Shown here: piece by piece, positions 2,359 through 22,100 of the stretch
Position numbering within the stretch: the stretch's first letter is position 1
Layout of the letters: each line of letters opens with the position of its first letter
Assembly: GCF_013459645.1 (NCBI RefSeq)
Contig: NZ_CP054861.1
Span: 664,501-728,500, forward strand
Reading direction: 5' to 3'
Length of the DNA stretch: 64,000 nt
Source: Martelella sp. NC20
GTDB lineage: Bacteria; Pseudomonadota; Alphaproteobacteria; Rhizobiales; Rhizobiaceae
Made by a program: the position numbers and the translations under genes
The notes under the pieces: model-generated
Databases searched by the model: none
What the model was told of the DNA's origin: nothing
What the model saw: only the letters and a program-made list of their open reading frames with translations

Positions 2359-2372
2359 TTGACTGAGGTCAA
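2359..2372. promoter_or_regulatory. FNR/FixK-type box upstream of the arc operon
   Basis: The sequence TTGACTGAGGTCAA is a perfect palindrome TTGAC-N4-GTCAA, the form bound by FNR/FixK-type regulators. Its centre is about 100 bp upstream of the carrier start at 2265, compatible with activation from a position near -41 with a leader of about 60 bases. Anaerobic control of arginine deiminase genes by FNR-type proteins is well known in other bacteria. Confidence 0.75.
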
Positions 2373-2689
2373 CGCCCCACCAACAATCCGCCTTCAACCC
2401 GTATCGACAGGGCCCGCGCCGCCCGCCCCGATATACGGACATCCGCCCTATCGCTCTCCTTCGCGATGCACCGGATGACAAGCCAGACGTGCCGCTGACG
2501 GCTTCAGCGTTCCAGAGCATCGCTCGATGCTCCGGATTCCTTGTGTTGGCGCGTCGAGTTAGGTCGGCGTAGAAATGCATGCTGATTGAAGGCTCCGCGC
2601 CTCATCCGCCAGCATTCGGCGAACGGATTGCCGAGCCACTTCAGGCGTCACAGGTCTCGTCTGCACCGTTCTGGCGCGACACTACCGCT

Positions 2690-2703
2690 TTGATCCACGT
2701 CAA
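2690..2703. promoter_or_regulatory. FNR/FixK-type box upstream of the E1 operon
   Basis: TTGATCCACGTCAA matches TTGAT-N4-RTCAA. The centre is about 133 bp upstream of the E1 alpha start at 2830 and it is the nearest box to that operon, so it may drive it under low oxygen. Confidence 0.65.
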
Positions 2704-2829
2704 AGCCGTATGGCAATGCGCTGCTAGTCTATTGCAGATGGCCGACTGACTGAGGCTGGGAGGGAAGCGTCCAGCTCGGAATATCCCGGTTGCCAAGATA
2801 CCGACGATCTTCACGAAGGAGGCAAAGCA

Positions 2830-3813
2830 ATGCCGACGAAATCGCAGCTCCTGTGGATGTATGGGATAATGGAAAAGGCCCGCTACTACGAGGACACGAT
2901 GGCGGTCGCCTATATGGAAGGCAAGACGCCGAAATTCGACATCGGCGCCGGGCCCTTGCCGGGCGAGATGCATCTGGCTGCCGGCCAGGAACCCTGTGCC
3001 GCCGGTGTCTGCGTTCATCTGCGCAAGGATGACGCCGTCACCGCCACCCACAGGCCTCATCACGTCGCGATCGCCAAGGGCGTCGACCTGAAGAAGATGA
3101 CGGCCGAGATTTATGGCAAGGAAAGTGGCCTCGCTGGCGGACGGGGCGGGCATATGCATCTGCTCGACCCGGAGGTGAACTTTTCCTGCAGCGGCATCAT
3201 CGCGCAGGGAACAAGCCCGGCCGTCGGCGCGGCCTTGGCCGCCAGGCTCAACAGCAGCGATGCCGTCGCCGTGTCCTATCTCGGCGAAGGAGCGGCCAAC
3301 CAGGGCGGCTTTCACGAAGCGATGAACCTCGCCGCCTTATGGAAGCTGCCCGTCATCTTCGTTATCGAGGACAATGCTTGGGGCATCTCAGTGCCGAAAT
3401 CGAAGTCGACGGCCGTTGCCGACAATTCGGTGCGCGCGGCAGGCTACGGCATTCCCGGGTTTCACGTGGCCGACAATGACACGCTTGAGCTTTTCAAGGT
3501 GGCCGGCGAGGCGGTCGCGCGTGCCCGGCGCGGTGAAGGCCCGACGCTGATTGAGGTCGAGACCTACCGCTATTACGGTCATTTTCAGGGTGATCCAGAA
3601 CTCTACCGTCCGAAAGATGAAGTCGCGAAACTCAAGGCGATGGATCCGATCCGGCGCCTTCGCGAGGCGATGATCGCGGGTGGCACAGTGACGGAAGCCG
3701 AGGCGGATGAGGTGCTTGCCAAGGCGAAAGCCGAGGTTGACGAAGCCTTCGCTTTCGCGCAGGCGGCCGCCTATGCAGCCCCGGAAGAAGCCCTCGAACG
3801 CGTGTTCGCCTGA
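2830..3813 (+). CDS. 2-oxoacid/acetoin dehydrogenase E1 component, alpha subunit
   Basis: This is a ThDP-dependent dehydrogenase E1 alpha of 327 residues, the usual length for the pyruvate/acetoin type. The ThDP/Mg motif begins at residue 152 as GEGAANQGGFHEA and ends with EDNAWGIS around 180-187; the GGRGGHMHL segment is at 103-111. The usual HRGH-like segment reads HRPHH at 75-79, a deviation worth noting. AAGGAGG sits upstream of the ATG. It pairs with the beta subunit 31 bp downstream and decarboxylates a 2-oxo acid or cleaves acetoin, passing the two-carbon unit to a lipoyl group. The substrate cannot be decided from sequence. The operon contains no E2 acyltransferase or E3. Confidence 0.85.
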   Translation: MPTKSQLLWMYGIMEKARYYEDTMAVAYMEGKTPKFDIGAGPLPGEMHLAAGQEPCAAGVCVHLRKDDAVTATHRPHHVAIAKGVDLKKMTAEIYGKESGLAGGRGGHMHLLDPEVNFSCSGIIAQGTSPAVGAALAARLNSSDAVAVSYLGEGAANQGGFHEAMNLAALWKLPVIFVIEDNAWGISVPKSKSTAVADNSVRAAGYGIPGFHVADNDTLELFKVAGEAVARARRGEGPTLIEVETYRYYGHFQGDPELYRPKDEVAKLKAMDPIRRLREAMIAGGTVTEAEADEVLAKAKAEVDEAFAFAQAAAYAAPEEALERVFA

Positions 3814-3844
3814 CCGGCGTCTCGGAATTCAGGAGAAGAGAATT

Positions 3845-4873
3845 ATGTCCAGCAATCGCATCATGACTGTCTCTCGCGCCATTTCGGAGGCGATCGCCCA
3901 AGAAATGCGTACAGATCCGAAGGTCTTCGTCATGGGCGAGGACATCGGCAAATATGGCGGCATCTTCGGCGCCACGACGGGTTTGCTCGCGGAATTTGGC
4001 GAAGAGCGGATTCGCGACACGCCAATCTCGGAGACCGGCTTCATAGGCGCCGGCGTAGGCGCGGCAATGTCCGGCATGCGTCCGATTGTCGAACTGATGT
4101 TCGTCGACTTCTTCGGCGTCTGCATGGACTCGATCTACAATTTGGCCGCGAAAAATATCTATTTCTCGGGGGGTAACTACAAGGTGCCCATGGTGATCAT
4201 GACGGCGACCGGAGGCGGCTATTCCGATGCCGGCCAGCATTCGCAGACGCTGCATGCCACCTTTGCTCACCTTCCTGGACTGAAGGTCGTTACGCCGTCG
4301 AACGCCTATGACGCAAAGGGCCTGATGATCTCGGCGATCCGCGACGACAGCCCGGTCATGTTCATGTTTCACAAGGGTTTGCAGGGCTTGGCCTGGATGG
4401 CTTCGCCGGAAGCGGCGGCGACGGAACTCCCGGAAGAAGCCTATTCGATCCCCTTCGGCGAGGCAAATATCGTCCGTTCCGGCAAGGACGTCACAATCGT
4501 GACGCTCAGCATGATGGTGCACCGCTCGCTGGAGGCTGCCGCGGAACTCGAAAGAGAAGGCATCGACGTTGAAGTCATTGATCTACGCACACTCGTGCCG
4601 CTTGACCGCAAGACCGTTATCGAGTCCGTCGCCAAGACGGGACGGCTGGTCGTGGTCGATGAGGACTATAAAAGCTTCGGTCTGACCGCGGAAATCATAG
4701 CGTCGGTAGTCGAGGACGATCCGGCGCATCTAAAGGCCGCTCCGCAGCGGCTTGCCGTTCCGGATGTGCCGATCCCCTACAGCCGACCGATGGAGCAGTT
4801 TGTCCTGCCCAATGCCGGCACGATCGCCGCGGCTGTCCGCGCAACGCTCGGCAATGTGCGGAAGGCCACCTGA
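3845..4873 (+). CDS. 2-oxoacid/acetoin dehydrogenase E1 component, beta subunit
   Basis: The 342-residue protein is the E1 beta partner. Typical blocks are visible: VFVMGEDIGKYGGIFGATTG near the N-terminus, RIRDTPISETGFIGAGVGAA, and the transketolase C-terminal domain with DLRTLVPLDRKTVIESVAKTGRL. ATG at 3845 follows GGAGAAGAGAATT; longer upstream starts would overlap the alpha gene and lack homologous sequence. The stop is one base before the next ATG, so translation is coupled. Alpha and beta together form the heterotetrameric E1 with active sites at their interface. FHKGLQGLAW in the middle resembles acetoin-type or related E1 beta proteins, but this is not decisive. Confidence 0.86.
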   Translation: MSSNRIMTVSRAISEAIAQEMRTDPKVFVMGEDIGKYGGIFGATTGLLAEFGEERIRDTPISETGFIGAGVGAAMSGMRPIVELMFVDFFGVCMDSIYNLAAKNIYFSGGNYKVPMVIMTATGGGYSDAGQHSQTLHATFAHLPGLKVVTPSNAYDAKGLMISAIRDDSPVMFMFHKGLQGLAWMASPEAAATELPEEAYSIPFGEANIVRSGKDVTIVTLSMMVHRSLEAAAELEREGIDVEVIDLRTLVPLDRKTVIESVAKTGRLVVVDEDYKSFGLTAEIIASVVEDDPAHLKAAPQRLAVPDVPIPYSRPMEQFVLPNAGTIAAAVRATLGNVRKAT

Positions 4874-4874
4874 T

Positions 4875-5120
4875 ATGGCGACGGATATCACTCTCCCGTC
4901 CGATCTCTGGGACGCCGCCGCCAACCCGGAAGGCATCGTCGCCAACTGGTTTTTTGCCGAAGGCGCCGGCGTCAAGAAGGGGGTGACCGTCGCCGAGATC
5001 ATGGTGGAGAAGACGAGCTTCGATATCGCCGCGCCTGCGGATGGGCGGTTGCACATTCGCGTCGCCAAAGACGGTGTCGTGAAGCCCGGGGCGGTGATCG
5101 GGACGGTCGGTGGAGACTAG
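4875..5120 (+). CDS. Free-standing lipoyl-domain protein
   Basis: This 81-residue protein is a single biotinyl/lipoyl domain with no linker or acyltransferase domain. The attachment motif is VEKTSFDI with the probable lipoylated Lys47, followed by the APADGRLHI turn. The ATG lies 1 bp after the E1 beta stop and the 3' end overlaps the ligase-like gene by 11 bp, so stoichiometric co-expression is expected. In normal complexes this domain is fused to E2. Here it must act as a carrier, either feeding an E2 encoded elsewhere or acting like a stand-alone carrier such as glycine-cleavage H protein. Function beyond being a lipoyl carrier is inference. Confidence 0.82.
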   Translation: MATDITLPSDLWDAAANPEGIVANWFFAEGAGVKKGVTVAEIMVEKTSFDIAAPADGRLHIRVAKDGVVKPGAVIGTVGGD

Positions 5121-5919
5121 TCCCATCGTCGCTGACCCTTCGACGGAGGTGGGGAGGACGTTTCCGCCATCTCATTTTGCCGCCGACATTCGGACGTTTG
5201 CGACGGCTCGATCCGGTCTCGAACAACAGGAGCGGCTTGACGCGGATCTCACGCCCGATACAGCGCCGCTCCTCATGGCCTGGCAAGCGCCGCGAGCACT
5301 GATCGTTGGCCGCAGCGACGCCCGGTTGCCCGGGTTCGCGCGCGCAGAGGAGAAATTGGCGGCCGAAGGCTGGCCCGTTCTGGTCCGTCGCAGCGGCGGT
5401 TCGGCCTGTCCTGTCTCGCCGGGAACGTTCCAGATCGCGCTCGTCCGCGCCAGTGCGGGAAAAGGCGATATCGAGGCCGGTTACCGAACCTTGGCAAGCC
5501 TGATCGACAGGCTGCTTTCGAGCGTTGGCGTCCAGTGCGAGGTCGGCGAACGGACGGGCGCCTTTTGTCCTGGGCGCTACGATCTGGGTGTCGGACCACG
5601 CAAATTCGCCGGGCTTTCCCAGCATTGGCGCTCTCGTGGACTGGTCACGATCGTCACAACCGCTGCCTCGATCATTGTCGAAGACAACATTGAGGAGTTC
5701 TGCCGTATCGTCAATCTCTTCTATGAAAAGGCCGGCAAGGAACGGCAATGTTCTTCGGCCTTCGTCACTGATGTGAAAAAGGCACTTTCAACCGGGATCA
5801 CACCGGATGTCGATCTGATCGTGGCTCTTCAGACGCGGCTTGCCCAAGAAGTGGATTCTTGGTCACATAAACCATTCGATTCCGTTCCACTCTCAGGGCT
5901 GCCGAGGCATTGGGTTTGA
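5110..5919 (+). CDS. Lipoate-protein ligase A-like protein
   Basis: The 269-residue protein belongs to the BPL/LplA/LipB cofactor transferase fold. The signature RRSGGSACPVSPGTFQIAL lies at residues 93-111, and KFAG at 165-168, followed by SQHW, corresponds to the catalytic-lysine KxxG...Q region of lipoate ligases. It starts with GTG inside the end of the lipoyl gene, giving an 11-bp overlap. Context strongly suggests that it attaches lipoate, or transfers octanoyl/lipoyl groups, to the neighbouring carrier. The C-terminal part, about residues 195-269, includes VIVEDNIEEFCRIVNLFYEKAGK and is less typical. It could prefer a modified cofactor; that is not resolvable here. Confidence 0.78.
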   Translation: METSPIVADPSTEVGRTFPPSHFAADIRTFATARSGLEQQERLDADLTPDTAPLLMAWQAPRALIVGRSDARLPGFARAEEKLAAEGWPVLVRRSGGSACPVSPGTFQIALVRASAGKGDIEAGYRTLASLIDRLLSSVGVQCEVGERTGAFCPGRYDLGVGPRKFAGLSQHWRSRGLVTIVTTAASIIVEDNIEEFCRIVNLFYEKAGKERQCSSAFVTDVKKALSTGITPDVDLIVALQTRLAQEVDSWSHKPFDSVPLSGLPRHWV

Positions 5920-5933
5920 CTTGGAGCGTCGGA

Positions 5934-5947
5934 TTGATGGCCATCAA
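5934..5947. promoter_or_regulatory. Perfect FNR consensus box, target unclear
   Basis: TTGATGGCCATCAA is a perfect match to the classic TTGAT-N4-ATCAA palindrome. It lies just after the ligase-like gene and 365 bp before the BON-domain gene, which has its own closer box. Either the gene it served has been lost or it contributes at a distance. Confidence 0.65.
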
Positions 5948-6014
5948 TATTTCCCTCGATCCTGCGCCACCGGATATTCCGGCCGCCGGCGCATGAAGGG
6001 CCCGGTTGAAATGT

Positions 6015-6164
6015 TCAGCCGACCAGCTTCTTTTCCGCGCCGACGACATGATCGGCGTTCGGACGCATCCACGGGAACATCCCGGGCGCGGCGGGCGGCG
6101 GAGCATCGGGCAAGGCGATGCGCTTGAACCTCGCGCCATCGACATTTTCCGCAATCCTCGCGAT
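6015..6164 (-). pseudogene. Possible C-terminal remnant of an E1 beta/transketolase-like gene
   Basis: An open frame of about 49 codons, bounded upstream by a stop and lacking a start, ends in residues FKRIALPDAPPPAAPGMF followed by WMRPNADHVVGAEKKLVG. The spacing of PD, P, P and PNA resembles the C-terminus of the E1 beta protein encoded 1.2 kb away. It is too short to be certain and may be chance; no ribosome binding site is present. If real, it is a fragment left by duplication or rearrangement. Confidence 0.25.
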
Positions 6165-6228: not shown

Positions 6229-6242
6229 TTGACGGCCGTCAA
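6229..6242. promoter_or_regulatory. FNR/FixK-type box upstream of the BON gene
   Basis: TTGACGGCCGTCAA is a perfect palindrome TTGAC-N4-GTCAA. Its centre is about 76 bp upstream of the BON-domain start, which fits class II activation from near -41. Confidence 0.75.
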
Positions 6243-6311: not shown

Positions 6312-6959
6312 ATGCAGGACAATACATTGCGCCAGAACATCATCGATGAACTGGAATTCGAACCCAGCATCGATGCTGCGGATATCGGCGTGGCGGTGGA
6401 AAACGGCATCGTCACCCTTACCGGTCATGTTCCGACCTATACCCAGAAGACCACGGTTGAAGCGGCCGTCAGGCGCATCCGGGGCGTGCGCGGCATCGCA
6501 GAACAGATCGAGGTCCGTCCGCGAGGCTTCCACATCACCGCCGATGACGAGATTGCCCGGCGGGCGGTCAACGCCCTGGAATGGAACGAGATCGTTCCTG
6601 GCGAAAAGCTTCAGGTTACGATCCAGAAGGGCTGGGCGACGCTGACCGGCAAGGTGGAATGGCAATATGAACGCGATGCGGCAATGCGCGCGATCAAGGG
6701 GCTTGCCGGAATAACCGGGATCAGTAATCTGATTGAAGTCGTGCCGAAGGTTTCCGCTCCGGACGTCAAGAAGCGCATCGAGGATGCCTTCAAGCGGGAT
6801 GCTCAGATCGAGGCCGATGCGATAAAGGTTCAGGTCCTGGATGGCAAGGTCACGCTTGAAGGCAAGGTGAAAGCCTATCGCGAACGTCAGGCCGCCGAGC
6901 GTGCGGCGTGGTCGGCGGCGGGCGTCCGGCATGTCGATGACCGCATCACGGTCCTTTAG
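6312..6959 (+). CDS. Triple BON-domain protein
   Basis: The 215-residue protein consists of three consecutive BON domains, roughly residues 1-70, 75-145 and 148-215, each with the GxVTLxGxV core: GIVTLTGHV, GWATLTGKV and GKVTLEGKV. No signal peptide or membrane segment is visible, so a cytoplasmic form is likely, unlike the periplasmic OsmY type. AGGAGG precedes the ATG by 5 bases. BON domains bind phospholipid or other ligands, and such proteins occur in stress regulons. The FNR-type box just upstream and a hairpin immediately after the stop suggest a single-gene transcript. Confidence 0.85.
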   Translation: MQDNTLRQNIIDELEFEPSIDAADIGVAVENGIVTLTGHVPTYTQKTTVEAAVRRIRGVRGIAEQIEVRPRGFHITADDEIARRAVNALEWNEIVPGEKLQVTIQKGWATLTGKVEWQYERDAAMRAIKGLAGITGISNLIEVVPKVSAPDVKKRIEDAFKRDAQIEADAIKVQVLDGKVTLEGKVKAYRERQAAERAAWSAAGVRHVDDRITVL

Positions 6960-6961
6960 AA

Positions 6962-7126: not shown

Positions 7127-8110
7127 ATGAAAGCGATGGTTTTGCGGGCGTTGCGAACCCCGCTGGCTTACGAAGAAAGGCCGGATCCGTCACCTGCCGC
7201 CGGTGAGGTGAGGGTAAGGGTTGAGGCCTGTGCCGTCTGCAGGACCGACCTGCATGTGGTCGACGGCGATCTGCCGGAAGTGAGACTGCCTGTCATTCCC
7301 GGCCACGAGATTGTCGGGATCGTCGAACAGCTTGGCGAGGGGGTGGTCACCCTTGCCGTCGGACAGAGGGTCGGCATTCCCTGGCTTGGGCATACATGCG
7401 GTCATTGCGCCTATTGCCTTGAAAACCGCGAAAACCTCTGTGATCATCCTCAGTTTACCGGCTGCACGAGGGATGGTGGGTTTGCCACAGATGTGATTGC
7501 CAATGCGGATTTCACCTTTCCCATGGACGGGTTTGACGATCCGGTGGCCGCCGCCCCGCTGATGTGCGCCGGCCTGATCGGATGGCGGTCGCTGAAGATG
7601 GCGGGCGAGGGAAAGCGCATCGGGCTTTACGGCTTCGGCGCGGCCGCGCATATCCTCGCGCAGGTGCTGGTCTGGCAGAGCCGTGAGGTCTATGCCTTTT
7701 CGCGCGCCGGCGATCGCGCCAGCCAGGATCATGCGCTGAGCCTCGGCGCCGTCTGGGCCGGGGCGTCGGAAGACGAGCCGCCGCACGCCCTCGACGCCGC
7801 CATCATCTTCGCTCCGGTTGGTGAGCTCGTGCCTTTGGCGCTCCGTGCCACCCGAAAAGGTGGCAGGGTTGTCTGCGGCGGCATTCACATGAGCGATATT
7901 CCGGCCTTTCCCTACCGCCTGCTTTGGGAAGAAAGGCACATTCTGTCGGTGGCCAATCTCACCCGGCAGGATGGACATGAATTTCTGGAGATCGCGCGGG
8001 CCGCCGGCGTATCGACCACTGTCAACCGCTACCCGCTCGAAGCGGCCAACCGCGCTCTCGATGATCTCCGGCACGGCCGTTTTCAGGGCGCCGCGGTTCT
8101 TGTTCCCTGA
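7127..8110 (+). CDS. Zinc-dependent alcohol dehydrogenase
   Basis: The 327-residue medium-chain dehydrogenase/reductase has catalytic zinc ligands C38 ([10 protein letters not shown]) and H60-E61 (PGHEIVG), and structural zinc cysteines C91, C94, C97 and C105. The third catalytic cysteine is probably in [10 protein letters not shown]. The Rossmann domain carries [10 protein letters not shown]. It resembles the AdhA-like group that is often grouped with stress and low-oxygen genes, and would reduce aldehydes or oxidise alcohols with NAD(H). No convincing ribosome site precedes the ATG. No box was found directly upstream, so it may be read from the BON promoter if the intervening hairpin leaks. 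Confidence 0.85.
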
Positions 8111-8339: not shown

Positions 8340-8353
8340 TTGACAGAGGTCAA
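8340..8353. promoter_or_regulatory. FNR/FixK-type box upstream of the usp gene
   Basis: TTGACAGAGGTCAA is a perfect palindrome TTGAC-N4-GTCAA centred about 67 bp upstream of the universal stress protein start. Confidence 0.75.
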
Positions 8354-8413: not shown

Positions 8414-9244
8414 ATGATTAGGGATTTGTGTGTTCACCTCGACGGGAGCAGTGGCGACAAGGACCGCCTTGAAGCCGCGCGTCGGATCGCAGTGATATTC
8501 GATGCTCATCTTTCCGGCGTCTTCGTCAATCGTCTGCCCGACATGCCGGCGACGGACTTCTATGGTTATTCCGCGGCTGACTTCGATGAAATGCAGAGTC
8601 AGGCGCGCGCCAAGGGCGACAAGATTGCCGCTGCGCTGGAAGGCCCGCTTTCCGACCTCGATGTCCGCCACGAACTGCGTCGTTTCGACGTCGTCTCATC
8701 CCGGTGGCAGCAGACCATCCTGGCCGAGGCGAGGCTATACGACCTGTTCGTCTCGACGCTGCCGCAGGAGGACGACCATGAGGCCATGGCGCTTGTTGAA
8801 TCCGTGCTTTTCGGTGCCGGGCATTCGGTATTGCTTGTGCCGCCGAAATGCATATCCACCCTCGATTTCTCGACCATCGTTCTGGGCTGGCGCAACACGC
8901 GGGAGGCAGCACGCGCTGTCGACGAGGCCTTGCCGTTCCTGAAGCGGGCGGAAAATGTGTCGGTCTGCATGATCGGCGACGACGAGCTTGGACGGATCGA
9001 GCGTGTCACCCAGGGAAATGACATCGCGCGCCATCTCGACCGCCACGGGGTCGCGGTCGAGCTCAATCCCCTGCCGGAGGGCAAGGGCGTGGGCGCCACC
9101 TTGCTTGAGGAGGCCGATCTGCTCAACGCCGGCCTGATCGTCATGGGCGGGTATGGTCATACCCGTCTGCGCGAGTGGGTGCTTGGCGGCGCGACGCGGG
9201 AGATCATGAAAAAGTCCGAAATCTCCGTTCTGATGGCACACTGA
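8414..9244 (+). CDS. Universal stress protein (tandem UspA domains)
   Basis: The 276-residue protein has the length of a two-domain UspA protein. The second domain keeps the ATP-binding pattern G-x2-G-x9-G-(S/T): GGYGHTRLREWVLGGAT, followed by SEISVLMAH at the C-terminus. The first domain is more diverged. ATG at 8414 is preceded by GGAG with 6-base spacing, which favours it over in-frame ATG 8402 and GTG 8372. Such proteins are typical members of Anr/FixK/FNR regulons and aid survival in hypoxia. It is the intact counterpart of the truncated usp copy that follows in the opposite orientation. Confidence 0.87.
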   Translation: MIRDLCVHLDGSSGDKDRLEAARRIAVIFDAHLSGVFVNRLPDMPATDFYGYSAADFDEMQSQARAKGDKIAAALEGPLSDLDVRHELRRFDVVSSRWQQTILAEARLYDLFVSTLPQEDDHEAMALVESVLFGAGHSVLLVPPKCISTLDFSTIVLGWRNTREAARAVDEALPFLKRAENVSVCMIGDDELGRIERVTQGNDIARHLDRHGVAVELNPLPEGKGVGATLLEEADLLNAGLIVMGGYGHTRLREWVLGGATREIMKKSEISVLMAH

Positions 9245-9581: not shown

Positions 9582-9595
9582 TTGACGCGCGTCAT
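9582..9595. promoter_or_regulatory. Imperfect FNR-type box
   Basis: TTGACGCGCGTCAT differs from TTGAC-N4-GTCAA at one outer base. It lies 182 bp upstream of the ATPase start and just beyond the truncated usp copy, so it may be a secondary site or the former usp promoter. Confidence 0.4.
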
Positions 9596-9665: not shown

Positions 9666-9679
9666 TTGATCTTCGTCAA
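9666..9679. promoter_or_regulatory. FNR/FixK-type box upstream of the P-type ATPase
   Basis: TTGATCTTCGTCAA matches TTGAT-N4-RTCAA; its centre is about 98 bp upstream of the ATPase start. Confidence 0.65.
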
Positions 9680-13554: not shown

Positions 13555-13859
13555 CGCACCGCCCTATCGTCTGTCGTGGGTTGTCACGGAAGCTTTTCAG
13601 TAAGCCGGAAGCTTATCTGCATGCAGCCAAAGTGCCGGCCTGAGGATGATGGCCATGACCCAGATTTTGTATCCACGATATGATACAGGGCCGAGGAACG
13701 CGCGCAAACACGATAAAGTCGGTTGCATTGCGATTCCGGGCCCTGAATATTGCGCAACAATCTGGGGCTCTTCCGCATTTCTGGTGCAGGTTGGGGTATT
13801 CACGGCAGGTCCGAACGGGTTCATAAGGTGGAAATTGCAATCGACGCCTTAAGTCGCCG

Positions 13860-14040
13860 GTGCTTGATGCTTTCCGCACGCTGATTTCGCCGGATCTTTC
13901 GATCGTCCAGGCGCTTCCGCGGGCCGACAAGGTGGTGCTTGTGGCACGGCCGGGGGGGGGGGGCGGGAGCCATGCTGTCCGTATTGCGGAAGCCCAAGCC
14001 GCCGCGTGTGGTCGGCATCGATGACCGGAACCGGCGATAG
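13860..14040 (+). pseudogene. N-terminal remnant of an ISL3-family transposase
   Basis: Reading from a GTG at 13860 gives LISPDLSIVQALPRADKVVL and then VARPGGGREPCCPYCGSPSR before RVWS. This resembles the N-terminal zinc-finger region (CPxCGxxSxRVHS) of ISL3 transposases. In the +1 frame after the G run, PKPPRVVGIDDRNRR resembles the conserved VIGVDDWAWRRG block, with the tryptophans changed and a stop. The gene is frameshifted, internally deleted and lacks the rest of the DDE domain. Identification is by motif resemblance only. Confidence 0.55.
13952..13963 (+). repeat. Run of 12 G
   Basis: A homopolymeric tract of 12 guanines lies inside the transposase remnant. It could be a slippage site or an assembly uncertainty; the remnant is non-functional in either reading frame. 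Confidence 0.8.
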
Positions 14041-14135
14041 CGGACCGGAACAGGCAGTACAAGACCTTCAACTGAACCCGAAAGATCGCAAGGCGCAATG
14101 CCGTCTTCCGGTCATGCCTGCTTTTGCTCGCGGCC

Positions 14136-15830: not shown

Positions 15831-15892
15831 CGTACCCCAGTTCGGCTAGCGAACGATCCAGCGCAACTATCGATAGACATGGCGAAGCTTCC

Positions 15893-16090
15893 CTATTCCT
15901 GCTCTCTCAAAGTCAGGAACATAAGCGCCAGATAGACCGCTGGAATGACAACAAGCACGCCCAGTTCTATGGTCACTGGAGCGCAATCGCTGGACATCAT
16001 ACGGTAGCCCAGAAAGATGACCGCGACGAAGATGATCATAGCGCCGATCGTCCAGGCCACAAGGCCATTTCTCACCCTCTGAACAGTCAT
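15893..16090 (-). CDS. Small two-helix membrane protein
   Basis: This 65-residue protein has two hydrophobic segments, about residues 10-30 ([19 protein letters not shown]) and 43-60 ([18 protein letters not shown]), with a short CAP-containing loop between. ATG at 16090 is preceded by GGAG with 6-base spacing; a longer frame to 16138 lacks a site. It is not recognised as a named family. It lies 62 bp upstream of the HAD-ATPase gene in the same direction and may be co-transcribed, possibly as a membrane partner. Confidence 0.55.
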
Positions 16091-16177
16091 CAGTTGCTCC
16101 ACTTCCATGTTGGTTTTCGCAAAGCCACTGCAACCCACATCCGGGAATACGGGCTCAAGATCATTGTAGCACGAAAG

Positions 16178-16265
16178 CTAAGTCACGCGCCTCGGCAGAA
16201 CCTCAAAACCCTTGGCGGTGTCGGATCGCTTGACGATCGCGACGCCAAGTCCGGGCATCACGTTC
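16178..16265 (-). pseudogene. IS5-family transposase fragment
   Basis: The minus strand reads [19 protein letters not shown] before running into a stop. This matches the block that in IS5-type DDE transposases precedes the W(V/I)VERTFAW signature, which is missing here. Only a few dozen codons remain, upstream of the small membrane protein gene. Confidence 0.6.
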
Positions 16266-16373
16266 TCTGCCCCGCTGACAACAGCCGCTGTCGAAGCCGA
16301 GCTTACGGTCCATGCCAACTGCCAGCATTGACGCAATTGAGATGCTTCCTTTCATATGGCTGCGGGTGTAACC

Positions 16374-16387
16374 TTGATATTCATCAA
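16374..16387. promoter_or_regulatory. Perfect FNR consensus box upstream of fixL
   Basis: TTGATATTCATCAA is an exact TTGAT-N4-ATCAA palindrome, centred about 91 bp upstream of the fixL start. It suggests that fixLJ transcription is itself controlled by FixK or the FNR homologue, a feedback loop. Confidence 0.75.
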
Positions 16388-16471
16388 ATGCGATTTCGAA
16401 GGACGCACGCTTTATCAAGCGCCACGCCGCGAAGAAGCATTGCCCCCGTGGCGACCCCGAAAGGAATGCAA

Positions 16472-17980
16472 ATGCCGGCGAGAGATATGCCAGGCTTTCA
16501 GGGGCGTTTCCTGCAGGTTGTCTTTTCCCGCCGCTTTGAAGGAAGGGCCGGCTATCTTCTGGCTGTTGTCGCGGTTGTAATCGTTTTTATCCTCCGGTTG
16601 GCCTTACAGAGTACTTTCGGCAATACCGCCACCTTCATTCTCTTCGTCCCCATGATTCTTGTCGCGGCAATCGCCGGCGGCATCGGTCCAGGACTATTTG
16701 CATGCGTCCTGTCTATAGCGGGTGCGGTTTATTTTATCGGCGCCGACCAGATCGTCTGGCTACAGGTATTTGTTTTCGGTCTTGTCGGGGTGGCAATCGC
16801 ATGGATGGGCGAAATGCTGCATCACGCGCGCCGCGCCCTCGACAAGTCCGAAGAGGCGCTGAGGACCCGTGAGGCGCACCTGCGTTCAATCCTCGACACC
16901 GTGCCAGACGCGACCGTTGTGATAGATGAGCATGGGCTTATCAATTCGTTCAGCGCTGCCGCCGTTCGACAATTCGGCTACACCGAGGCTGAGGTGCTTG
17001 GCCGAAACATTCACATCTTGATGCCGGAGCCCTACCACCGCGAGCATGACGGCTACCTCCATCGCTATCTGGCCACCGGTGAGAAGCGGATCATCGGCGT
17101 CGATCGTGTTGTGGTAGGGCGCAGGAGGGACGGCTCCACCTTTCCGATGAAACTCTTTGTCGGCGAGATGAGATCAGCAGCTGGCCGCTTCTTCACTGGC
17201 TTCATCCGTGACCTCACCGAGCGCGAAGACTCCGAAGCGCGATTGCAGCAAATCCAGAATGAGCTGGCGCACCTCTCCCGTGTTAACGAACTCGGTGAAA
17301 TGGCGTCGACGCTCGCGCATGAACTCAACCAACCACTCGCTGTCATTGCAAATTATGCCCAGGGCTGTGTCCGCTTCCTCAAGGATGTAGATGATACGAC
17401 CGCGACCCGCATCAGGGACGCCGTGGAGGAGATGGCGAAACAATCACTGCGGGCCGGGGGGATCATCCGGCATCTGAGGGAATTCGTCACGCGGGGCGAA
17501 ACGGAGAAATCATCGGAAGGCGTGCGCAAGCTCATCGAGGAAGCAGCGGCCCTGGCACTCGTCGGCTCACGGCAGCAGGGTGTGCGGTCAGTCTTCGAGT
17601 TTGTTTCGGATGAACAAAATGTCCTGGTCGATAAGGTTCAAATCCAGCAGGTCTTGATCAACCTCATGCGCAACAGCATCGAGGCCATGCGTGAAAGCAA
17701 TCAGCAAGACCTGATAGTGCGGACGGTGCAAGACGGGCCCGGACATGTCATAATCGAGGTGGCTGACACGGGACCAGGCATCTCCGACGAAATAGCGGCT
17801 CGCCTTTTCCAACCTTTCGTGACCAGCAAGGCAAATGGCATGGGTATCGGGCTTTCGATATCCAAACGCATCATAGAATCGCATGGCGGACAGATATCAG
17901 TTACCCGCAATACCGCGGACGGCGCCACGTTCCGGTTCTCGCTCCCGATCGCAGGAAAAGAGACTACCGATGCACATTGA
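16472..17980 (+). CDS. fixL: Oxygen-sensing histidine kinase FixL
   Basis: The 502-residue protein has a membrane-embedded N-terminus (about four helices, residues 28-112), a haem PAS domain at 135-250 and a kinase core. In the PAS domain, EHDGYLHRY aligns with the haem-binding part of Bradyrhizobium FixL. H192 fits the proximal haem ligand, and R198 and R212 ([15 protein letters not shown]) fit the oxygen-sensing arginines; the position of Bradyrhizobium H214 is Arg here. The H-box is LAHELNQP (H283), the N-box [11 protein letters not shown] and the G2 box [14 protein letters not shown] precedes the ATG. The stop overlaps fixJ. Under low oxygen it is expected to phosphorylate FixJ. Confidence 0.92.
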
Positions 17981-18587
17981 CAGCTATGTGGTCCACGTGG
18001 TCGACGATGAGGAGCCGGTGCGCAAGTCGCTTGCCTTCCTCCTGACCACGGTGGGCTTCACGGTCAGGGTGCACGAGTCCGCGACGAGCTTTCTCGCTTC
18101 CGCGCCGGCCATCGGCAAAGCCTGCCTCGTTACTGACTTGAGGATGCCGGGTATGAGCGGAGTGGAGCTTTTGTATAAGCTGAACGAGACCGGTACCATG
18201 ATCCCTGCCGTCGTCATCACCGGGCATGGTGACGTTCCCATGGCTGTTGCAGCGATGAAAGCCGGCGCCATCGACTTCATCGAGAAGCCGTTTGAAGACG
18301 AGGTGCTGATTGAGGCTATCAAACGCGCCGCAAGTCAGCTTGAACAAACCGCGCGTCCCGTCGAAGACGCCGCTGCCCTTTCCGCCAGGCTTGATCTCCT
18401 TTCGGAGCGCGAACGCCAGGTTATGTCAGGCGTCGTCGCTGGTTTGCCCAACAAGGCAATCGCCTACGATCTTGGCATCAGCCCCCGCACGGTCGAGGTC
18501 CATCGCGCCAATATCATGGCCAAGATGCAGGCCAGGAACCTGCCCGAACTGGTGCGCATGACCATCGCCATGCGCGTCTTCCTCTGA
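17970..18587 (+). CDS. fixJ: Response regulator FixJ
   Basis: The 205-residue protein has a receiver domain with acidic pair D12-D13, phospho-acceptor D56 in [13 protein letters not shown], the ITGHGD loop and the conserved lysine in FIEKPF. A LuxR-type helix-turn-helix follows: [20 protein letters not shown] then [20 protein letters not shown]. The ATG lies inside the last codons of fixL, an 11-base overlap, showing translational coupling with its kinase. Phosphorylated FixJ activates fixK-type promoters, and a matching site lies ahead of the fixK gene downstream. Confidence 0.93.
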
Positions 18588-18629
18588 CCCTGCTCTGGAG
18601 CGGCGACGGCTTAGCCCAGACGACCTTTC

Positions 18630-18643
18630 TTGATCCACCTCAA
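18630..18643. promoter_or_regulatory. Near-consensus FNR/FixK box
   Basis: TTGATCCACCTCAA departs from TTGAT-N4-RTCAA at one base. It is centred about 80 bp upstream of the receiver-like gene and 43 bp after fixJ. Confidence 0.55.
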
Positions 18644-18716
18644 TGCAGACGGCCGCGAACAATGGGATCAATCACGATTGGTGGCCCTGTCGGGCCGGGT
18701 CTTTGGAAAAGTGGAT

Positions 18717-19064
18717 ATGGCAACGGCGAATGTACTGGTCGTCGCTCCGGATGCAGCATTCGGGCACTCCATCGCTTTCGCACTGGAAAGCGGCGGCTTC
18801 AAGGTCGTCCTCCATCGCTACGTGGATGAGGCCTTTGTGTCGCCGGACGCGCTCGATGCTGCATGCGCGGTCGTTGATGACGACGCGATTGTCGACTGGA
18901 AACGGTCGCGCGAACTGTTCGACAGCTTTGGGAAACCTGTCATTCTGTTGCTGAATCTTTTGCGTTCCGCACCCGATCTTCCCGTCGCCAAGCACCTCAC
19001 GAAGCCGTTCCTCGGTGAACCGTTGATCGAAGCGGTGTTGAACGTGATTGCAGGTCAGCAATGA
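18717..19064 (+). CDS. Stand-alone receiver-like protein
   Basis: The 115-residue protein resembles a FixJ-type receiver domain without an output domain. It keeps a VVDDDAIVD segment at the phospho-acceptor position and the switch-lysine region HLTKPF, but lacks the acidic pair after beta-1 (VLVVAPDAAFG instead of VVDDE). It may therefore be poorly phosphorylated or act as an adaptor. The start at ATG 18717 follows AAGTGGAT; the upstream in-frame ATG at 18630 falls within the FNR-type box. Its position between fixJ and fixK recalls the small FixL/FixJ modulators of rhizobia, but no sequence identity to FixT is apparent. Confidence 0.65.
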   Translation: MATANVLVVAPDAAFGHSIAFALESGGFKVVLHRYVDEAFVSPDALDAACAVVDDDAIVDWKRSRELFDSFGKPVILLLNLLRSAPDLPVAKHLTKPFLGEPLIEAVLNVIAGQQ

Positions 19065-19068
19065 CCCG

Positions 19069-19087
19069 CTACGTAGTATCCCTTACG
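19069..19087 (+). promoter_or_regulatory. Putative FixJ-binding site of the fixK promoter
   Basis: CTACGTAGTATCCCTTACG closely resembles the FixJ site reported for rhizobial fixK promoters (TAMGTAGTTTCCC-like). It ends 69 bp upstream of the fixK ATG, a suitable activating position. The match is from memory of the consensus. Confidence 0.5.
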
Positions 19088-19155
19088 AACATAACCGAAT
19101 TTCGCTCTGTCGGATTATGCGCGAATGATTGCTCATCAACCTGAGGGAGACAATC

Positions 19156-19812
19156 ATGGCCGGCCCGAACACATCGCAGTTCCTATACGACGCACATGAT
19201 GGGCCCGTCCCAGGCGAGCTACCCTGTCCGCCGTTCGGCCGGGGTGTTCAGCCTCCAGCCTTCTACCCGGCCGGCGCCGAGATTTATGCTCAGGGCGAGA
19301 CGTGCGGAAGCCTTTACAAGGTCGAGTTCGGCGCAGTGCGGATCTATCGCCTGCTGGCGGATGGCCGTCGCCAGATATCGGCCTTTCATCTCTCCGGGGA
19401 GGTCTTCGGCTTCGAAGCCGACACGGTCCATCATTTTTTCGCCGAGGCGATTTGCGCTACCGGCATCCGGACCCTGCGTACGACGTCATCCCAAGGCGAT
19501 CGTGCGATCGAGCTTCTGCCCATGGCGCTCCGGGGTCTCGTGCGAGCGCAGGAACATCTTCTTGTGCTCGGTCGCCAAAATGCCATCGAACGGGTCGCTG
19601 CGTTCCTCGTTGAAATGTGCGAGCGGCAGGGCGGATTGCGGCAGGTCGAGCTACCGATGTCGCGGACCGATATTGCGGATTATCTCGGTCTCACAATCGA
19701 GACCGTCTCGCGCGTTTTCTCCAGGCTGAGGCAGAAGGGTGTCATTGGATTGCCAAGTCTGCGCGGCGTGGACATCGTCAAATGGCAAACGCTGCAGGAC
19801 ATGGCGGCATAA
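19156..19812 (+). CDS. fixK: Crp/Fnr-family regulator FixK
   Basis: The 218-residue protein has a cyclic-nucleotide-like beta-barrel N-terminal domain and a C-terminal helix-turn-helix with MSRTDIADYLGLTIETVSRV. The recognition helix ETVSR carries the E..SR residues that read TTGA half-sites. It lacks the N-terminal cysteine cluster of FNR, which together with its place after fixLJ identifies it as FixK-type. GGGAG precedes the ATG at 19156, and a FixJ-type site lies upstream. It is the prime candidate, with the FNR homologue at 22.1 kb, for binding the boxes spread over this island. Confidence 0.88.
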   Translation: MAGPNTSQFLYDAHDGPVPGELPCPPFGRGVQPPAFYPAGAEIYAQGETCGSLYKVEFGAVRIYRLLADGRRQISAFHLSGEVFGFEADTVHHFFAEAICATGIRTLRTTSSQGDRAIELLPMALRGLVRAQEHLLVLGRQNAIERVAAFLVEMCERQGGLRQVELPMSRTDIADYLGLTIETVSRVFSRLRQKGVIGLPSLRGVDIVKWQTLQDMAA

Positions 19813-20326
19813 GGGACGCCATATGGGAACCGGCCGGTTGCGGGATTCGTTGAATCTGCAACCGCCTCGGCAGCTACGCCGACGCTGGTCTGACGAATTC
19901 AAAGCACGGGCGGTGGCCGAGGCACCTGGAGCCAGGCGCGAATGTCTCGGCAATCTCGCGCCGTCTGGACATCCACCCGTCCCAGTTCTTTAACTGGCAT
20001 CGTGCAGTCCTGAATACTCGGGAGGGTCTGACGGAACCGACCCGCAAGCCTGGCTTGCCGATGTCGTCGCCGCCGCAACGCCGCCATAGCGCGATCGGCC
20101 AAGAATACCCGGTCGAAATCCGACAACTGATCAAACAGCCAGCGCCGCGGTGCTCACCGGACGGTTGCGGCCAACGTGTCGGCAGAATGCCTGGAACTCG
20201 CCTGGTCGGACGAGGTGATTCGGCGGCGTCACCAAGTCGATGCTGGATCAACCTACGGTGCCACTCTTCATGGCTCGGTAATGGTGTAATTACGCACGCC
20301 GCTCCCGGCCGGCAGAGCTTAACCCC
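19813..20326. other. Intergenic region with an IS66-type scar
   Basis: This 514-bp stretch holds the frameshifted transposase remnant listed separately. The rest, about 20020-20326, has short broken frames on both strands and no recognisable gene, site or repeat. Confidence 0.5.
19862..20015 (+). pseudogene. IS66-type accessory transposase (TnpA/OrfA) fragment
   Basis: The plus strand reads LRRRWSDEFKARAVAEA in one frame, then LEPGANVSAISRRLDIHPSQ and FFNWHRAVL in the next. Together they reproduce the N-terminal helix-turn-helix of IS66-family OrfA proteins with a frameshift after GCC GAG GCA. The remaining IS genes and ends are absent. Confidence 0.6.
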
Positions 20327-20776
20327 TTACGCCTCCAGAGCGTCGCGCCCCGACATGCGCGTGATATGTATGCGGAAGAAAACGTGCGGGGCGTGGTCGG
20401 CCGCCGGCGGCAGAGCCGGCTTCAATGCGCCAGGTTCCCACCAGTCGACATGCTTGGAGAGTAGCGACCAAGCGCGTTCGCGCAACCGCTTATGGCCGAT
20501 CTGATCCGGCAATTCCTCGAAAAGACCTTCGGCAACAACGCTTTGCCAGGTCCGCCCTTCGCCTTTCTCCTCGACCAGAATTGCCACGTTCGGATTGGCT
20601 CGCATTGTGTCCAGCTTGCGGCCGGGCATGGTGAATGCATAGGCGCAGTCGTCGGCATAGGCATAGAAGATCGGTACGGCATAGGGCTGATTGTCGCTCG
20701 AGCAGGCAAGCCGTGCGAGACGGTTGGCTGCGACAATAGCTGTGCATTGGGCTGCGGAAAGTTCTCGAATAATCAT
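20327..20776 (-). CDS. Pyridoxamine 5'-phosphate oxidase-like flavin-binding protein
   Basis: The 149-residue protein fits the small PNPOx-like/flavin-nucleotide-binding split-barrel family. Features are SAAQCTAIVAANRLARLACS at the N-terminus, YAVPIFYAYADD, and MPGRKLDTMRANPNVAILVE in the flavin-binding region. GGAG lies 6 bases before the ATG. Members are found next to universal stress proteins and in Anr/FixK/FNR regulons. A degenerate FNR-type site lies about 88 bp upstream, inside the end of the next gene. Substrate unknown; a direct role in vitamin B6 synthesis is unlikely. Confidence 0.8.
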   Translation of the reverse strand: MIIRELSAAQCTAIVAANRLARLACSSDNQPYAVPIFYAYADDCAYAFTMPGRKLDTMRANPNVAILVEEKGEGRTWQSVVAEGLFEELPDQIGHKRLRERAWSLLSKHVDWWEPGALKPALPPAADHAPHVFFRIHITRMSGRDALEA

Positions 20777-20857
20777 AGCGGTCTCCGTTCAAAAGCGTAA
20801 CGAAAATGCGGTCAGCCGCGTCCATTATCATTGCCGAGCTATGATTTTGCTCCAGAA

Positions 20858-20871
20858 ATGATGCGGATCAG
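20858..20871. promoter_or_regulatory. Degenerate FNR-type site upstream of the PNPOx-like gene
   Basis: ATGATGCGGATCAG keeps the TGAT-N4-ATCA core of the FNR site but loses both outer bases. It is centred about 88 bp from the start at 20776, the same distance range as the better boxes. Confidence 0.35.
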
Positions 20872-21563
20872 TCTGATGGCCGCGCACGGCGGGACAGCAT
20901 CTCATTTTGGGCGGCTGGCATGCCTTCTCCTTCGTATTTTCGCATGAGTTCGAGCACCTCGGCGTCATCGAGTTGATGGAACTCCCGATAGTGGAAGCCG
21001 AGCGCGCGGAAATGCGACGGTTGGGAAAGGCATACAATCCGATCGGCCTCCCGAGACAAATCCGACACGGCCTCCGGCGAGGCGACGGGCAGCGCCAGGA
21101 TGATCCGCGCGGGTGACCGGCGGCGGATGGCACGCGCGGCAACCTTCATAGTTGTGCCCGTTGCGGCGCCATCGTCGACCAGGATCACGGTCTTTCCCTT
21201 CACCGAAAGCGGTTGCCGTTCGGCCCTGTAGACCGCGCGGCGGCGTTCCAGTTCGGGCCTCTCGCGGGCAATCAAGGCTGAGAGTTGCTCATCCTGCAAG
21301 CCGTAGGCTTCGATGATTTCGCGGTTGAGGACCACTTCCGGAGGATTGCCGTCAACGATCGCCGCCACTGCGAGTTCCGGATTGCCCGGCGCGCCGACCT
21401 TGCGAACGATGACGAGGTCGAGGCGGGCGCCGAGCGCCAGGGCGACTTCGACCGCGACAGGCACGCCGCCACGCGGGAGCGCCAACACGATCGGATCGCG
21501 CGGCGCCAGAGCGGCGATTTCAGTTGCGAGCATGCGCCCGGCTTCGGAACGGTTGCGAAACAT
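20868..21563 (-). CDS. Phosphoribosyltransferase-family protein
   Basis: The 231-residue type I phosphoribosyltransferase fold carries the PRPP-binding motif VILVDDGAATGTTM and an N-terminal LALPRGGVPVAVEVALAL segment. This subgroup is a common companion of stress proteins and DUF2267 proteins; the acceptor base is not known. The ATG lies 3 bp after the stop of the DUF2267 gene, so the two form an operon. The stop region overlaps the degenerate FNR-type site of the following gene. Confidence 0.85.
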   Translation of the reverse strand: MFRNRSEAGRMLATEIAALAPRDPIVLALPRGGVPVAVEVALALGARLDLVIVRKVGAPGNPELAVAAIVDGNPPEVVLNREIIEAYGLQDEQLSALIARERPELERRRAVYRAERQPLSVKGKTVILVDDGAATGTTMKVAARAIRRRSPARIILALPVASPEAVSDLSREADRIVCLSQPSHFRALGFHYREFHQLDDAEVLELMRKYEGEGMPAAQNEMLSRRARPSD

Positions 21564-21566
21564 TGT

Positions 21567-21992
21567 TCAATGCGTCGGCCAGAGTTGGCGGAGCGCCTTC
21601 TTCATAGAGGTGCGGACCTGCGCGATTTCGCCTTGGTCGAGATGACGGTCGAGCAACCCGAAAACTGCGGCGATCGCCCAATCCGGCTCGTCGAGGGGGT
21701 CGCTCGCCATGTCGTGTTGGATGCGTGCGACGAACTGCTCCTTGCGGCGATCGCGGACCGGGGTCTCCAAGGGCTTCCAGCCCTCGAAGTAGATGCCGCG
21801 CACAAGCGCGGGGAGTTGCGCGGCGAGGTCAGCCATTTCCGCTTCGGGCAGCCAGTCACGCAGCGCGTGCAAAACAGATCTGAGAAGGCGGTGGGCGCGC
21901 CGTTCGCTCCAGCCCAGATCCTCGGCGAGTTCATTGACCCATTCCTGAGCCTGGTCCGCAGCCTGCGTGAAGCCTGAGATTGTGGTGTTCAT
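21567..21992 (-). CDS. DUF2267 protein
   Basis: The 141-residue alpha-helical protein matches the DUF2267 pattern: WVNELAEDLGWSERRAHRLL, then LRDWLPEAEMADLAAQLPAL and GIYFEGW. It has no signal or membrane segment. Function is unknown. AAAGG lies 8 bases before the ATG. It is the first gene of a pair with the phosphoribosyltransferase and has an FNR-type box about 96 bp upstream. Confidence 0.82.
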   Translation of the reverse strand: MNTTISGFTQAADQAQEWVNELAEDLGWSERRAHRLLRSVLHALRDWLPEAEMADLAAQLPALVRGIYFEGWKPLETPVRDRRKEQFVARIQHDMASDPLDEPDWAIAAVFGLLDRHLDQGEIAQVRTSMKKALRQLWPTH

Positions 21993-22081
21993 GATGAGCG
22001 CCTTTCTTGAGCCTGCATATAAGGCAAGGATGCGTCAGCATCTTCGAGCCTTAGCATAATGCGTCGTTTGACCTTGTTGCA

Positions 22082-22095
22082 TTGAGCGGCGTCAA
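22082..22095. promoter_or_regulatory. FNR/FixK-type box upstream of the DUF2267 gene
   Basis: TTGAGCGGCGTCAA keeps TTGA and GTCAA around four bases, one base off the palindromic consensus. It is centred about 96 bp upstream of the start at 21992 and lies just beyond the stop of the FNR homologue gene. Confidence 0.6.
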
Positions 22096-22100
22096 TTTGC

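What the first reader, a model, noticed from the sequence alone, without database searches (positions are those of the whole stretch)
2359..22095. A low-oxygen regulon of repeated FNR/FixK boxes spread over 20 kb around its own regulators
By eye I find TTGAY-N4-RTCAA palindromes at 2359, 2690, 5934, 6229, 8340, 9666 and 16374, near-matches at 9582, 18630 and 22082, and a degenerate one at 20858. Most lie 65-135 bp upstream of a start codon. The genes served include the arc operon, the E1/lipoyl operon, a BON protein, a universal stress protein, a P-type ATPase, fixL, a receiver-like protein and a DUF2267/phosphoribosyltransferase pair. Both candidate readers, FixK and an FNR homologue, are in the same island. 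Compact co-location of sensors, regulators and targets, including several genes of unknown function, makes this a self-contained hypoxia module.
Basis: partly seen in the sequence, partly recalled or inferred. Interest (0 to 1): 0.78.

Follow-up and report, generated by a model that had tools for sequence, protein, structure and literature searches.

The report
Low-oxygen survival gene island with N-ATPase
This stretch of a bacterial chromosome gathers oxygen sensors, their switch proteins and several sets of survival genes that carry the same low-oxygen switch sequence, a known kind of island, but here it also ties arginine fermentation to a second, little-understood ATP-driven ion pump.

Summary
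The boxes are real. Seven perfect TTGAY-N4-RTCAA sites lie within 14,029 bp, against 29 in the whole 6.11-Mb genome (0.07 expected; never more than 4 in 20,000 random placements). Box positions are conserved in sister species to within 1 bp of the start codon (arcD -107, BON -83/-84, USP -73/-74).

The low-oxygen reading is supported: a FixL-type PAS kinase, FixJ, FixK and an FnrL-type regulator lie inside. 'Self-contained' is not: the cassettes occur, with boxes, in sister species that lack this FixK, and the genome has an FnrN and 21 further boxes elsewhere. A ~10-kb block holding the regulators (about 13.7-23.7 kb) has no long match in 12 sister genomes and looks like a later add-on.

The kind is known: rhizobial FixK/FNR islands and the Burkholderia lxa locus. 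Unexpected: the arc box heads an operon running beyond the window, arcDABC-SDR-N-type ATPase. Some N-ATPase operons elsewhere carry a perfect upstream box (6 of 35; reversed pattern 0 of 35; ordinary F-type 0 of 16), and arc genes lie beside 6 of 35 (four genera). This suggests an arginine-fuelled anoxic ion pump, which is testable.

The parts
1..820 (-). arcA, arginine deiminase; continues left of the window, followed by arcB, arcC, an SDR gene and a nine-gene N-type ATPase operon (chromosome C1:654773-664500)
   Evidence: Pfam ADI 7.4e-67; left neighbours read
817..2265 (-). arcD-type antiporter (DcuC/YfcC family), first gene of the arc-SDR-N-ATPase operon
   Evidence: Pfam PF03606 8.9e-115; NCBIfam NF008611 284.8 bits, below its 500 cut-off
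2359..2372 (-). perfect FNR/FixK box, starts 107 bp before the arcD ATG
   Evidence: same -107 position in G001, G006, G012 with one mismatch
2690..2703 (+). perfect box, upstream of the E1/lipoyl operon
2830..3813 (+). dehydrogenase E1 alpha
   Evidence: Pfam E1_dh 2.6e-76
3845..4873 (+). dehydrogenase E1 beta
   Evidence: Pfam Transket_pyr/Transketolase_C
4875..5120 (+). free-standing lipoyl-domain protein, about 80 aa
   Evidence: Pfam Biotin_lipoyl 1.7e-7; plasmid homologues named lipoyl domain-containing protein
5110..5919 (+). lipoate-ligase-like protein
   Evidence: Pfam LplA-B_cat 3.8e-18
5934..5947 (+). perfect box, distal of a tandem pair before BON
   Evidence: G006 also has a tandem pair before BON, at other spacing
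6229..6242 (+). perfect box, starts 83 bp before BON
   Evidence: same place (-83/-84) in G012 and G006
6312..6959 (+). protein with three BON domains
   Evidence: Pfam BON 6.8e-50, 3 stretches
7127..8110 (+). zinc-binding alcohol dehydrogenase, no box of its own found
   Evidence: NCBIfam TIGR02822 331 bits, over its 283.5 cut-off; best site in 400 bp upstream has 3 mismatches
8340..8353 (+). perfect box, starts 74 bp before USP
   Evidence: same place (-73/-74) in G001, G006, G012
8414..9244 (+). universal stress protein
   Evidence: Pfam Usp 7.5e-11 (scanned from 8408)
9582..9595 (+). near-match box (1 mismatch)
9666..9679 (+). perfect box before the P-type ATPase; absent in G012
9771..12464 (+). 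P-type cation ATPase, nearest to the PMR1-type calcium family
   Evidence: Pfam; TIGR01522 578.2 bits, below its 798.3 cut-off
12502..13554 (-). AI-2E family transporter, no box found near it
   Evidence: Pfam 6.4e-43; no site with up to 1 mismatch between 9679 and 16374
14136..15830 (-). HAD-IIB phosphatase fused to a HerA-like ATPase domain
   Evidence: Pfam
16374..16387 (+). perfect box before fixL
16466..17980 (+). fixL, PAS histidine kinase
   Evidence: FixL haem-PAS chain 1d06 3.7e-57 (scanned from 16427); NF041777 FixL 517 bits, below its 850 cut-off
17970..18587 (+). fixJ
   Evidence: NF006900 FixJ 308.5 bits, over its 255 cut-off
18630..18643 (+). near-match box before the receiver-like gene
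18717..19064 (+). single-domain receiver-like protein, possible feedback partner of FixL/FixJ
   Evidence: no Pfam or NCBIfam hit; predicted receiver fold, mean pLDDT 87.1; fixL-fixJ-this-fixK order repeated in G971
19156..19812 (+). fixK
   Evidence: best solved relative FixK2 4i2o 3.5e-41; NF050806 FixK 181.5 bits, below its 300 cut-off
20327..20776 (-). pyridoxamine-phosphate-oxidase-like flavoprotein
   Evidence: Pfam Pyridox_ox_2 6e-16
20868..21563 (-). phosphoribosyltransferase domain protein
   Evidence: Pfam 8.8e-19
21567..21992 (-). DUF2267 protein
   Evidence: Pfam 1.4e-29
22082..22095 (-). near-match box before the DUF2267/PRT pair
22101..22934 (-). FnrL-type FNR homologue, Cys 37/42/45 and 133/134
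   Evidence: NF045989 FnrL 198.6 bits, below its 300 cut-off; cysteines listed
13740..23739 (.). segment without long DNA match in 12 same-genus genomes: probable later add-on that brought the regulators
   Evidence: GC 56-60% in the 2-kb windows between 13 and 21 kb, but similar dips occur elsewhere in the window, e.g. 55.7% at 23-25 kb

Best explanation
A low-oxygen survival island, assembled in steps. Older cassettes (arcDABC-SDR-N-ATPase; BON-ADH-USP-P-type ATPase) carry their own FNR-type boxes. They are shared with some sister species, where a chromosomal FnrN-type regulator presumably reads them. A ~10-kb block was added later with FixL, FixJ, a receiver-like protein, FixK, an FnrL-type regulator and further genes. 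Inferred working: when oxygen falls, FixL phosphorylates FixJ, FixJ~P raises fixK, and FixK (with FnrN and the FnrL-type protein at still lower oxygen) binds the boxes. This switches on arginine fermentation, an N-type ATPase that spends that ATP to keep an ion gradient, an E1/lipoyl operon and stress proteins. A box before fixL and a near-box before the receiver-like gene would give feedback. Shown: the boxes, their clustering, their conserved positions, the gene families and the gene layout. Inferred: co-transcription, binding, regulation, ion-pump role and order of acquisition.
For: Box cluster P about 1.6e-12 and never more than 4 in 20,000 placements. Conserved positions in siblings with diverged flanks: arcD -107 in 4 of 4 genomes compared, BON -83/-84 in 3 of 3, USP -73/-74 in 4 of 4. 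FixL, FixJ, FixK and FnrL-type assignments. No FixK orthologue in 12 of 12 same-genus genomes, where the best match of each is 35-37% identical; 69-72% identical on Mesorhizobium plasmids, where arc, USP, PPOX or P-type ATPase genes lie around it. Box-dense relatives: 9 perfect boxes in 33.7 kb of an Agrobacterium plasmid, 5 in 40.6 kb and 3 in 40.6 kb of two Mesorhizobium plasmids. Classic box targets elsewhere in the genome, by eye hemA, hemN and fnrN. arc-SDR-N-ATPase gene run conserved in G001 and G006.
Against: No expression data. No recurrent -10 element at class-II spacing. The arcD box has one mismatch in all three siblings, and the P-type ATPase box is missing in G012. FixL, FixK and the FnrL-type protein score below the curated NCBIfam cut-offs. 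ADH and AI-2E have no box that I found, and the nearest to HAD-HerA is 550 bp away. 9 of the 21 boxes outside the window fall inside ORFs in my simple gene picking. The block's absence in siblings could be loss rather than gain, and its low GC is not unique in the window.
Confidence: 0.78

Rival explanations
1. The boxes are read only by the chromosomal FnrN. The FixLJ-FixK block is a passenger, or works on a few genes only, such as its own.
For: Siblings without this FixK keep the same boxes. The genome has an FnrN with a CxxC-x7-C motif beside hemN and a box. No ccoN target in the genome.
Against: The island has a box before fixL and a near box before the receiver gene. Of the four genomes compared the arcD box is perfect only here, and the P-type ATPase box is present here but not in G012.
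Confidence: 0.3
2. A Fix/FNR symbiotic or denitrification regulon remnant, in which arc and stress genes are bystanders of a lost respiratory cluster.
For: On M. ciceri pMc1192 the 72%-identical FixK lies with fixNOQP, fixGHIS and nirK.
Against: No ccoN in this genome; boxes stand directly before the arc, BON and USP genes at conserved distances.
Confidence: 0.07
3. Chance cluster of palindromes.
For: Half-sites of this kind are common; shuffles of the window give 4.5 matches with up to one mismatch.
Confidence: 0.01

Closest known systems
FixLJ-FixK / FnrN anaerobox regulon of Rhizobiales (PMC7888657, passages seen; PMC4999443, passages and the FnrN/FixK section seen)
   Same: FixL-FixJ-FixK, FnrN-type partner, TTGAT-N4-ATCAA-like boxes, fixK clusters next to a target, transfer of fixLJ-fixK clusters between orders
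   Different: No ccoN found in this genome; targets here are arginine fermentation, N-ATPase and stress proteins; the regulators appear added to boxes that already existed in the genus
Burkholderia cenocepacia lxa (low-oxygen-activated) locus (PMC6127331 and PMC3759415, passages seen; the original Sass 2013 paper is not held)
   Same: Large co-located low-oxygen locus with USP and BON proteins; tied to anoxic persistence
   Different: lxa has six USPs and a heat-shock protein, here one USP and no heat-shock protein among the 20 proteins scanned; arc and N-ATPase genes are not mentioned for lxa in the passages I saw
DosR dormancy regulon of Mycobacterium tuberculosis (one comparison passage seen in PMC6127331; gene content otherwise recalled)
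   Same: USP genes under low-oxygen control; recalled: P-type ATPase and phosphoribosyltransferase genes too
   Different: Different regulator family and DNA box (recalled)
N-type ATPase (PMC5376962, abstract and passages seen)
   Different: Here joined to an arc gene run under an FNR/FixK box; that paper calls the cellular functions largely unexplored

Membership tests
FixLJ-FixK system | FixL with haem-binding PAS and kinase domains | tested here: met
   By sequence: matches solved FixL haem PAS domains (1d06 3.7e-57, 1dp6 9e-47) and the FixL kinase part. Haem binding itself not testable; NCBIfam FixL model 517 of 850 bits, below cut-off
FixLJ-FixK system | FixJ response regulator | tested here: met
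   NF006900 308.5 bits, cut-off 255
FixLJ-FixK system | FixK-class CRP/FNR regulator | tested here: inconclusive
   Nearest solved relative is FixK2, but the Caulobacter FixK model gives 181.5 of 300 bits
FixLJ-FixK system | FixJ-dependent fixK promoter | not tested
   No FixJ site model was used
FixLJ-FixK system | cbb3 oxidase (ccoN) as target | tested here: not met
   0 ccoN matches in the own genome. I treat this as a usual, not an obligatory, feature (recalled)
lxa locus | Co-located low-oxygen genes with USP and BON | tested here: met
lxa locus | Several USPs and a heat-shock protein | tested here: not met
   One USP, no heat-shock protein among the 20 proteins scanned; so filed as 'works like', not as a member
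N-type ATPase | Operon atpDCQRBEFAG, second to an F-type | tested here: met
   (Q and the names of the subunits read by eye)
N-type ATPase | Beta subunit over the TIGR03305 cut-off | tested here: inconclusive
   717.1 bits against a cut-off of 752; the same genome's other beta scores 566.9
FnrL | NCBIfam FnrL equivalog score | tested here: not met
   198.6 of 300 bits; called FnrL-type only
FixT (Fe-S receiver inhibitor of FixL) | Receiver fold | tested here: met
   Model mean pLDDT 87.1; receiver chains at TM about 0.7-0.8
FixT (Fe-S receiver inhibitor of FixL) | 4-Cys motif | tested here: not met
   One cysteine, Cys50, invariant in 34 aligned sequences

The most novel reading that the evidence does not exclude
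N-type ATPases of many free-living Pseudomonadota are anoxia-induced ion pumps under FNR/FixK/Anr-type control. In lineages such as this one they are hard-wired to the arginine deiminase pathway, so that ATP from carbamate kinase is spent to hold up the ion gradient when respiration stops.
Probability: 0.35. Interest if true: 0.75.

Novelty: new variant of a known kind. Interest (0 to 1): 0.5.

Why it matters
It gives a natural example of a regulatory takeover: the same boxes in sister species with and without FixLJ-FixK, so one can ask what the added oxygen sensor changes. More important, it offers a concrete, testable role (low-oxygen pump fed by arginine) for the N-type ATPase, which a 2017 paper still described as functionally largely unexplored (PMC5376962, abstract seen).

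Tried and rejected
Considered and dropped: a chance cluster; a FixT orthologue for the receiver-like protein (one Cys only); a promoter reading from -10 elements (best 2-4 of 6 bases); HAD-HerA as a marker gene for such islands (4 of 385 class genomes including this one at E 1e-60; of three plasmid neighbourhoods looked at, the Agrobacterium one fits, the Aminobacter and S. meliloti ones do not).

The original lxa paper is not held. The last paper search was too broad to use.

Errors found and corrected: my first atpD query was in the wrong frame (made; used). It was rebuilt and used. One search is superseded; atpD identities should be ignored. In one search the USP and fixL start positions were 3 bases off; one search repeats the distances. 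In checking this report I also recounted the Agrobacterium boxes (9).

Left out were short same-genus matches of up to 181 bp: stretches inside kinase/CRP genes, and repeats at about 19863-20039 and 23465-23550. The table was itself cut ('more matches are not listed'). The query began at 4800, so E1 was not tested in siblings.
Full report
OBSERVATION. The whole genome (6,109,677 bp, three contigs) has 29 perfect sites and 7 matches to the reversed control pattern. Seven sites fall in 14,029 bp where 0.07 would be expected. In 20,000 random placements of the 28 chromosomal sites the fullest such span held four, in 24 of the placements. Of the 21 perfect sites outside the window, a simple ORF picker put 12 between genes and 9 inside ORFs. 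By eye from that output, intergenic ones lie before hemA, between hemN and an FnrN, beside a Crp/Fnr gene, between a Crp/Fnr gene and a nitrate-transporter-like gene, and before a USP gene.

GENES. Pfam and NCBIfam give arcA, arcD, E1 alpha and beta, a small lipoyl protein, a lipoate-ligase-like protein, a triple-BON protein, a zinc alcohol dehydrogenase, USP, a P-type ATPase nearest the PMR1 calcium type, an AI-2E transporter, a HAD-HerA fusion, FixL, FixJ, FixK, a PPOX-like flavoprotein, a phosphoribosyltransferase, DUF2267 and an FnrL-type regulator. FixL and FixK match solved FixL and FixK2 chains. Genes to the left of the window were named by eye from ORFs: arcB, arcC, an SDR gene and atpD-C-Q-R-B-E-F-A-G on the same strand. 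Neighbours overlap or lie close together; the widest gap I measured in this run is the 28 bp between SDR and atpD. The beta subunit matches TIGR03305 at 717 bits. An IstB-like ORF (by eye) follows at C1:654136.

FOOTPRINTS. The arcD box starts at -107 in four of four genomes examined. It is perfect here and TTAAC...GTCAA in G001, G006 and G012. The BON box is at -83, -84 and -83 in this genome, G006 and G012; in G001 only the end of a BON gene was found, so it is not counted. The USP box is at -74, -73, -74 and -74 in this genome, G006, G012 and G001. All seven BON and USP copies are perfect, although the four inner bases and the flanks vary. The P-type ATPase box is not in G012. Conserved position with changing surroundings is what a binding site predicts.

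HISTORY. In the 41 genomes, the best FixK match in each of the 12 same-genus genomes is 35-37% identical; the best outside the genus is 51% (G039). Mesorhizobium plasmids reach 69-72%. There FixK lies with arcDABC, a P-type ATPase, phosphoketolase, acetate kinase and USP (pB2-1-1), or with fixNOQP, nirK, USP, FixL, FixJ and a PPOX protein (pMc1192). A DNA search of window 4800-24400 gave long same-genus matches (83-89%) to all or parts of BON, ADH, USP, the P-type ATPase and AI-2E in 4 of 12 genomes (G001, G006, G008, G012; not each gene in each), and to 23740-24400 in G003 and G010. For 13740-23739 no listed same-genus match exceeds 181 bp. G012 carries arcDABC, a distant (26%) FNR-family gene, a distant (41%) phosphoribosyltransferase, BON, ADH, USP and the P-type ATPase within about 14 kb, with four perfect boxes and no FixLJ-FixK in the stretch held. 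GC falls to 56-60% between 13 and 21 kb, but also elsewhere in the window. An ORF at 23158-23667 resembles a TraA-type relaxase piece (by eye). I read this as a regulator block added to boxes that were already there. Loss in siblings is not excluded. PMC4999443 (passages and one section seen) proposed such a takeover for Caulobacterales.

N-ATPASE. The arc-SDR-N-ATPase gene run is also in G001 and G006. By the beta-subunit search 3 of 13 genus members have the second type. Three searches (61, 385 and 398 genomes, overlapping sets, with score limits that leave out weaker matches) gave 35 loci that I count as N-type from score and gene order. In up to 1.45 kb upstream of atpD, 6 of 35 have a perfect box, three of them 93-119 bp from the start; the reversed pattern gives 0 of 35. 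With one mismatch there are 8 sites against 3 for the reversed pattern. Sixteen F-type loci give 0 of 16; that control is weak, because the stretch before an F-type atpD is usually coding (recalled). 29 of 35 have no perfect box there, among them loci from small genomes of 1.1-2.2 Mb and this genome's own atpD, whose box lies before arcD. Arc genes lie within the stretches held for 6 of 35 loci: G000, G001, G006, G194 (box, arcC, N-ATPase in one direction), G656 (arcDABC divergent from the N-ATPase, no box found) and G564 (an arcD piece 2.4 kb beyond the far end of the operon). That is four genera; G383 (L196) was not extended. In G750 a FixL-like and a FixK-like gene with a box lie beside the N-ATPase, which has its own box. 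No paper in the library names both N-ATPase and arginine deiminase, nor both with FNR. A broader search for N-ATPase, FNR, anaerobic and atp operon listed ten of 24 papers, none of the ten containing N-ATPase. The library lacks most subscription papers.

RECEIVER-LIKE PROTEIN. The 115-aa protein between fixJ and fixK has 79 relatives at E 0.001. It shows invariant Cys50, Asp54 and Lys96 in 34 aligned sequences, chosen by me from the 79, and a predicted receiver fold. It occurs in 2 of 249 genomes of the order at E 1e-8, this one included. In the other one (G971) the order fixL-fixJ-this-fixK is repeated. A feedback role like that of Caulobacter FixT (PMC7078487, abstract and outline seen) is a guess; the 4-Cys motif is absent.

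KNOWN OR NEW. Box-bearing low-oxygen clusters are known: FixK/FnrN anaerobox clusters in Rhizobium (PMC7888657, passages) and, as a low-oxygen locus, the Burkholderia lxa locus with USPs and a BON protein (PMC6127331, passages). Agrobacterium pAtFPH-AT4a has 9 perfect boxes in the 33.7 kb held, with USP, Hsp20, GroEL, HAD-HerA and P-type ATPases. This locus is a new variant of that kind. The link between arginine fermentation and the N-ATPase in one gene run is the part I could not find in print.

Noticed in passing
window 2830-5919: E1 alpha/beta with a free-standing lipoyl protein and a lipoate-ligase-like gene but no E2 or E3 in the run; one plasmid (Paracoccus seriniphilus) hits both the lipoyl and the ligase query within 1.6 kb.
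   Followed up: partly
window 14136-15830: HAD-IIB phosphatase fused to a HerA-like ATPase; rare (4 of 385 class genomes including this one) yet also beside USP, P-type ATPase and boxes in Agrobacterium (L057) and G028 (L151).
   Followed up: partly
window 8125-8327, 6956-7057, 19863-20039, 23465-23550: Short, mostly intergenic stretches that recur in this or same-genus genomes; 8125-8327 has an 82% copy in L019, again beside a box-bearing USP locus.
   Followed up: partly
window 58741-58754: Eighth perfect box, between two divergent ORFs, the rightward one MarR-like by eye.
   Followed up: no
window 22817-23667: Frames resembling broken pieces of a TraA/MobF relaxase at the right edge of the added block (by eye).
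   Followed up: no
C1:654136-654558 (L052): IstB-like transposon ORF (by eye) just beyond the end of the N-ATPase operon.
   Followed up: no
C2 (L020): 4,014 bp of the 259,514-bp second contig match a 259,503-bp plasmid of Martelella sp. NC18 at 100%, which suggests the organism's name.
   Followed up: partly
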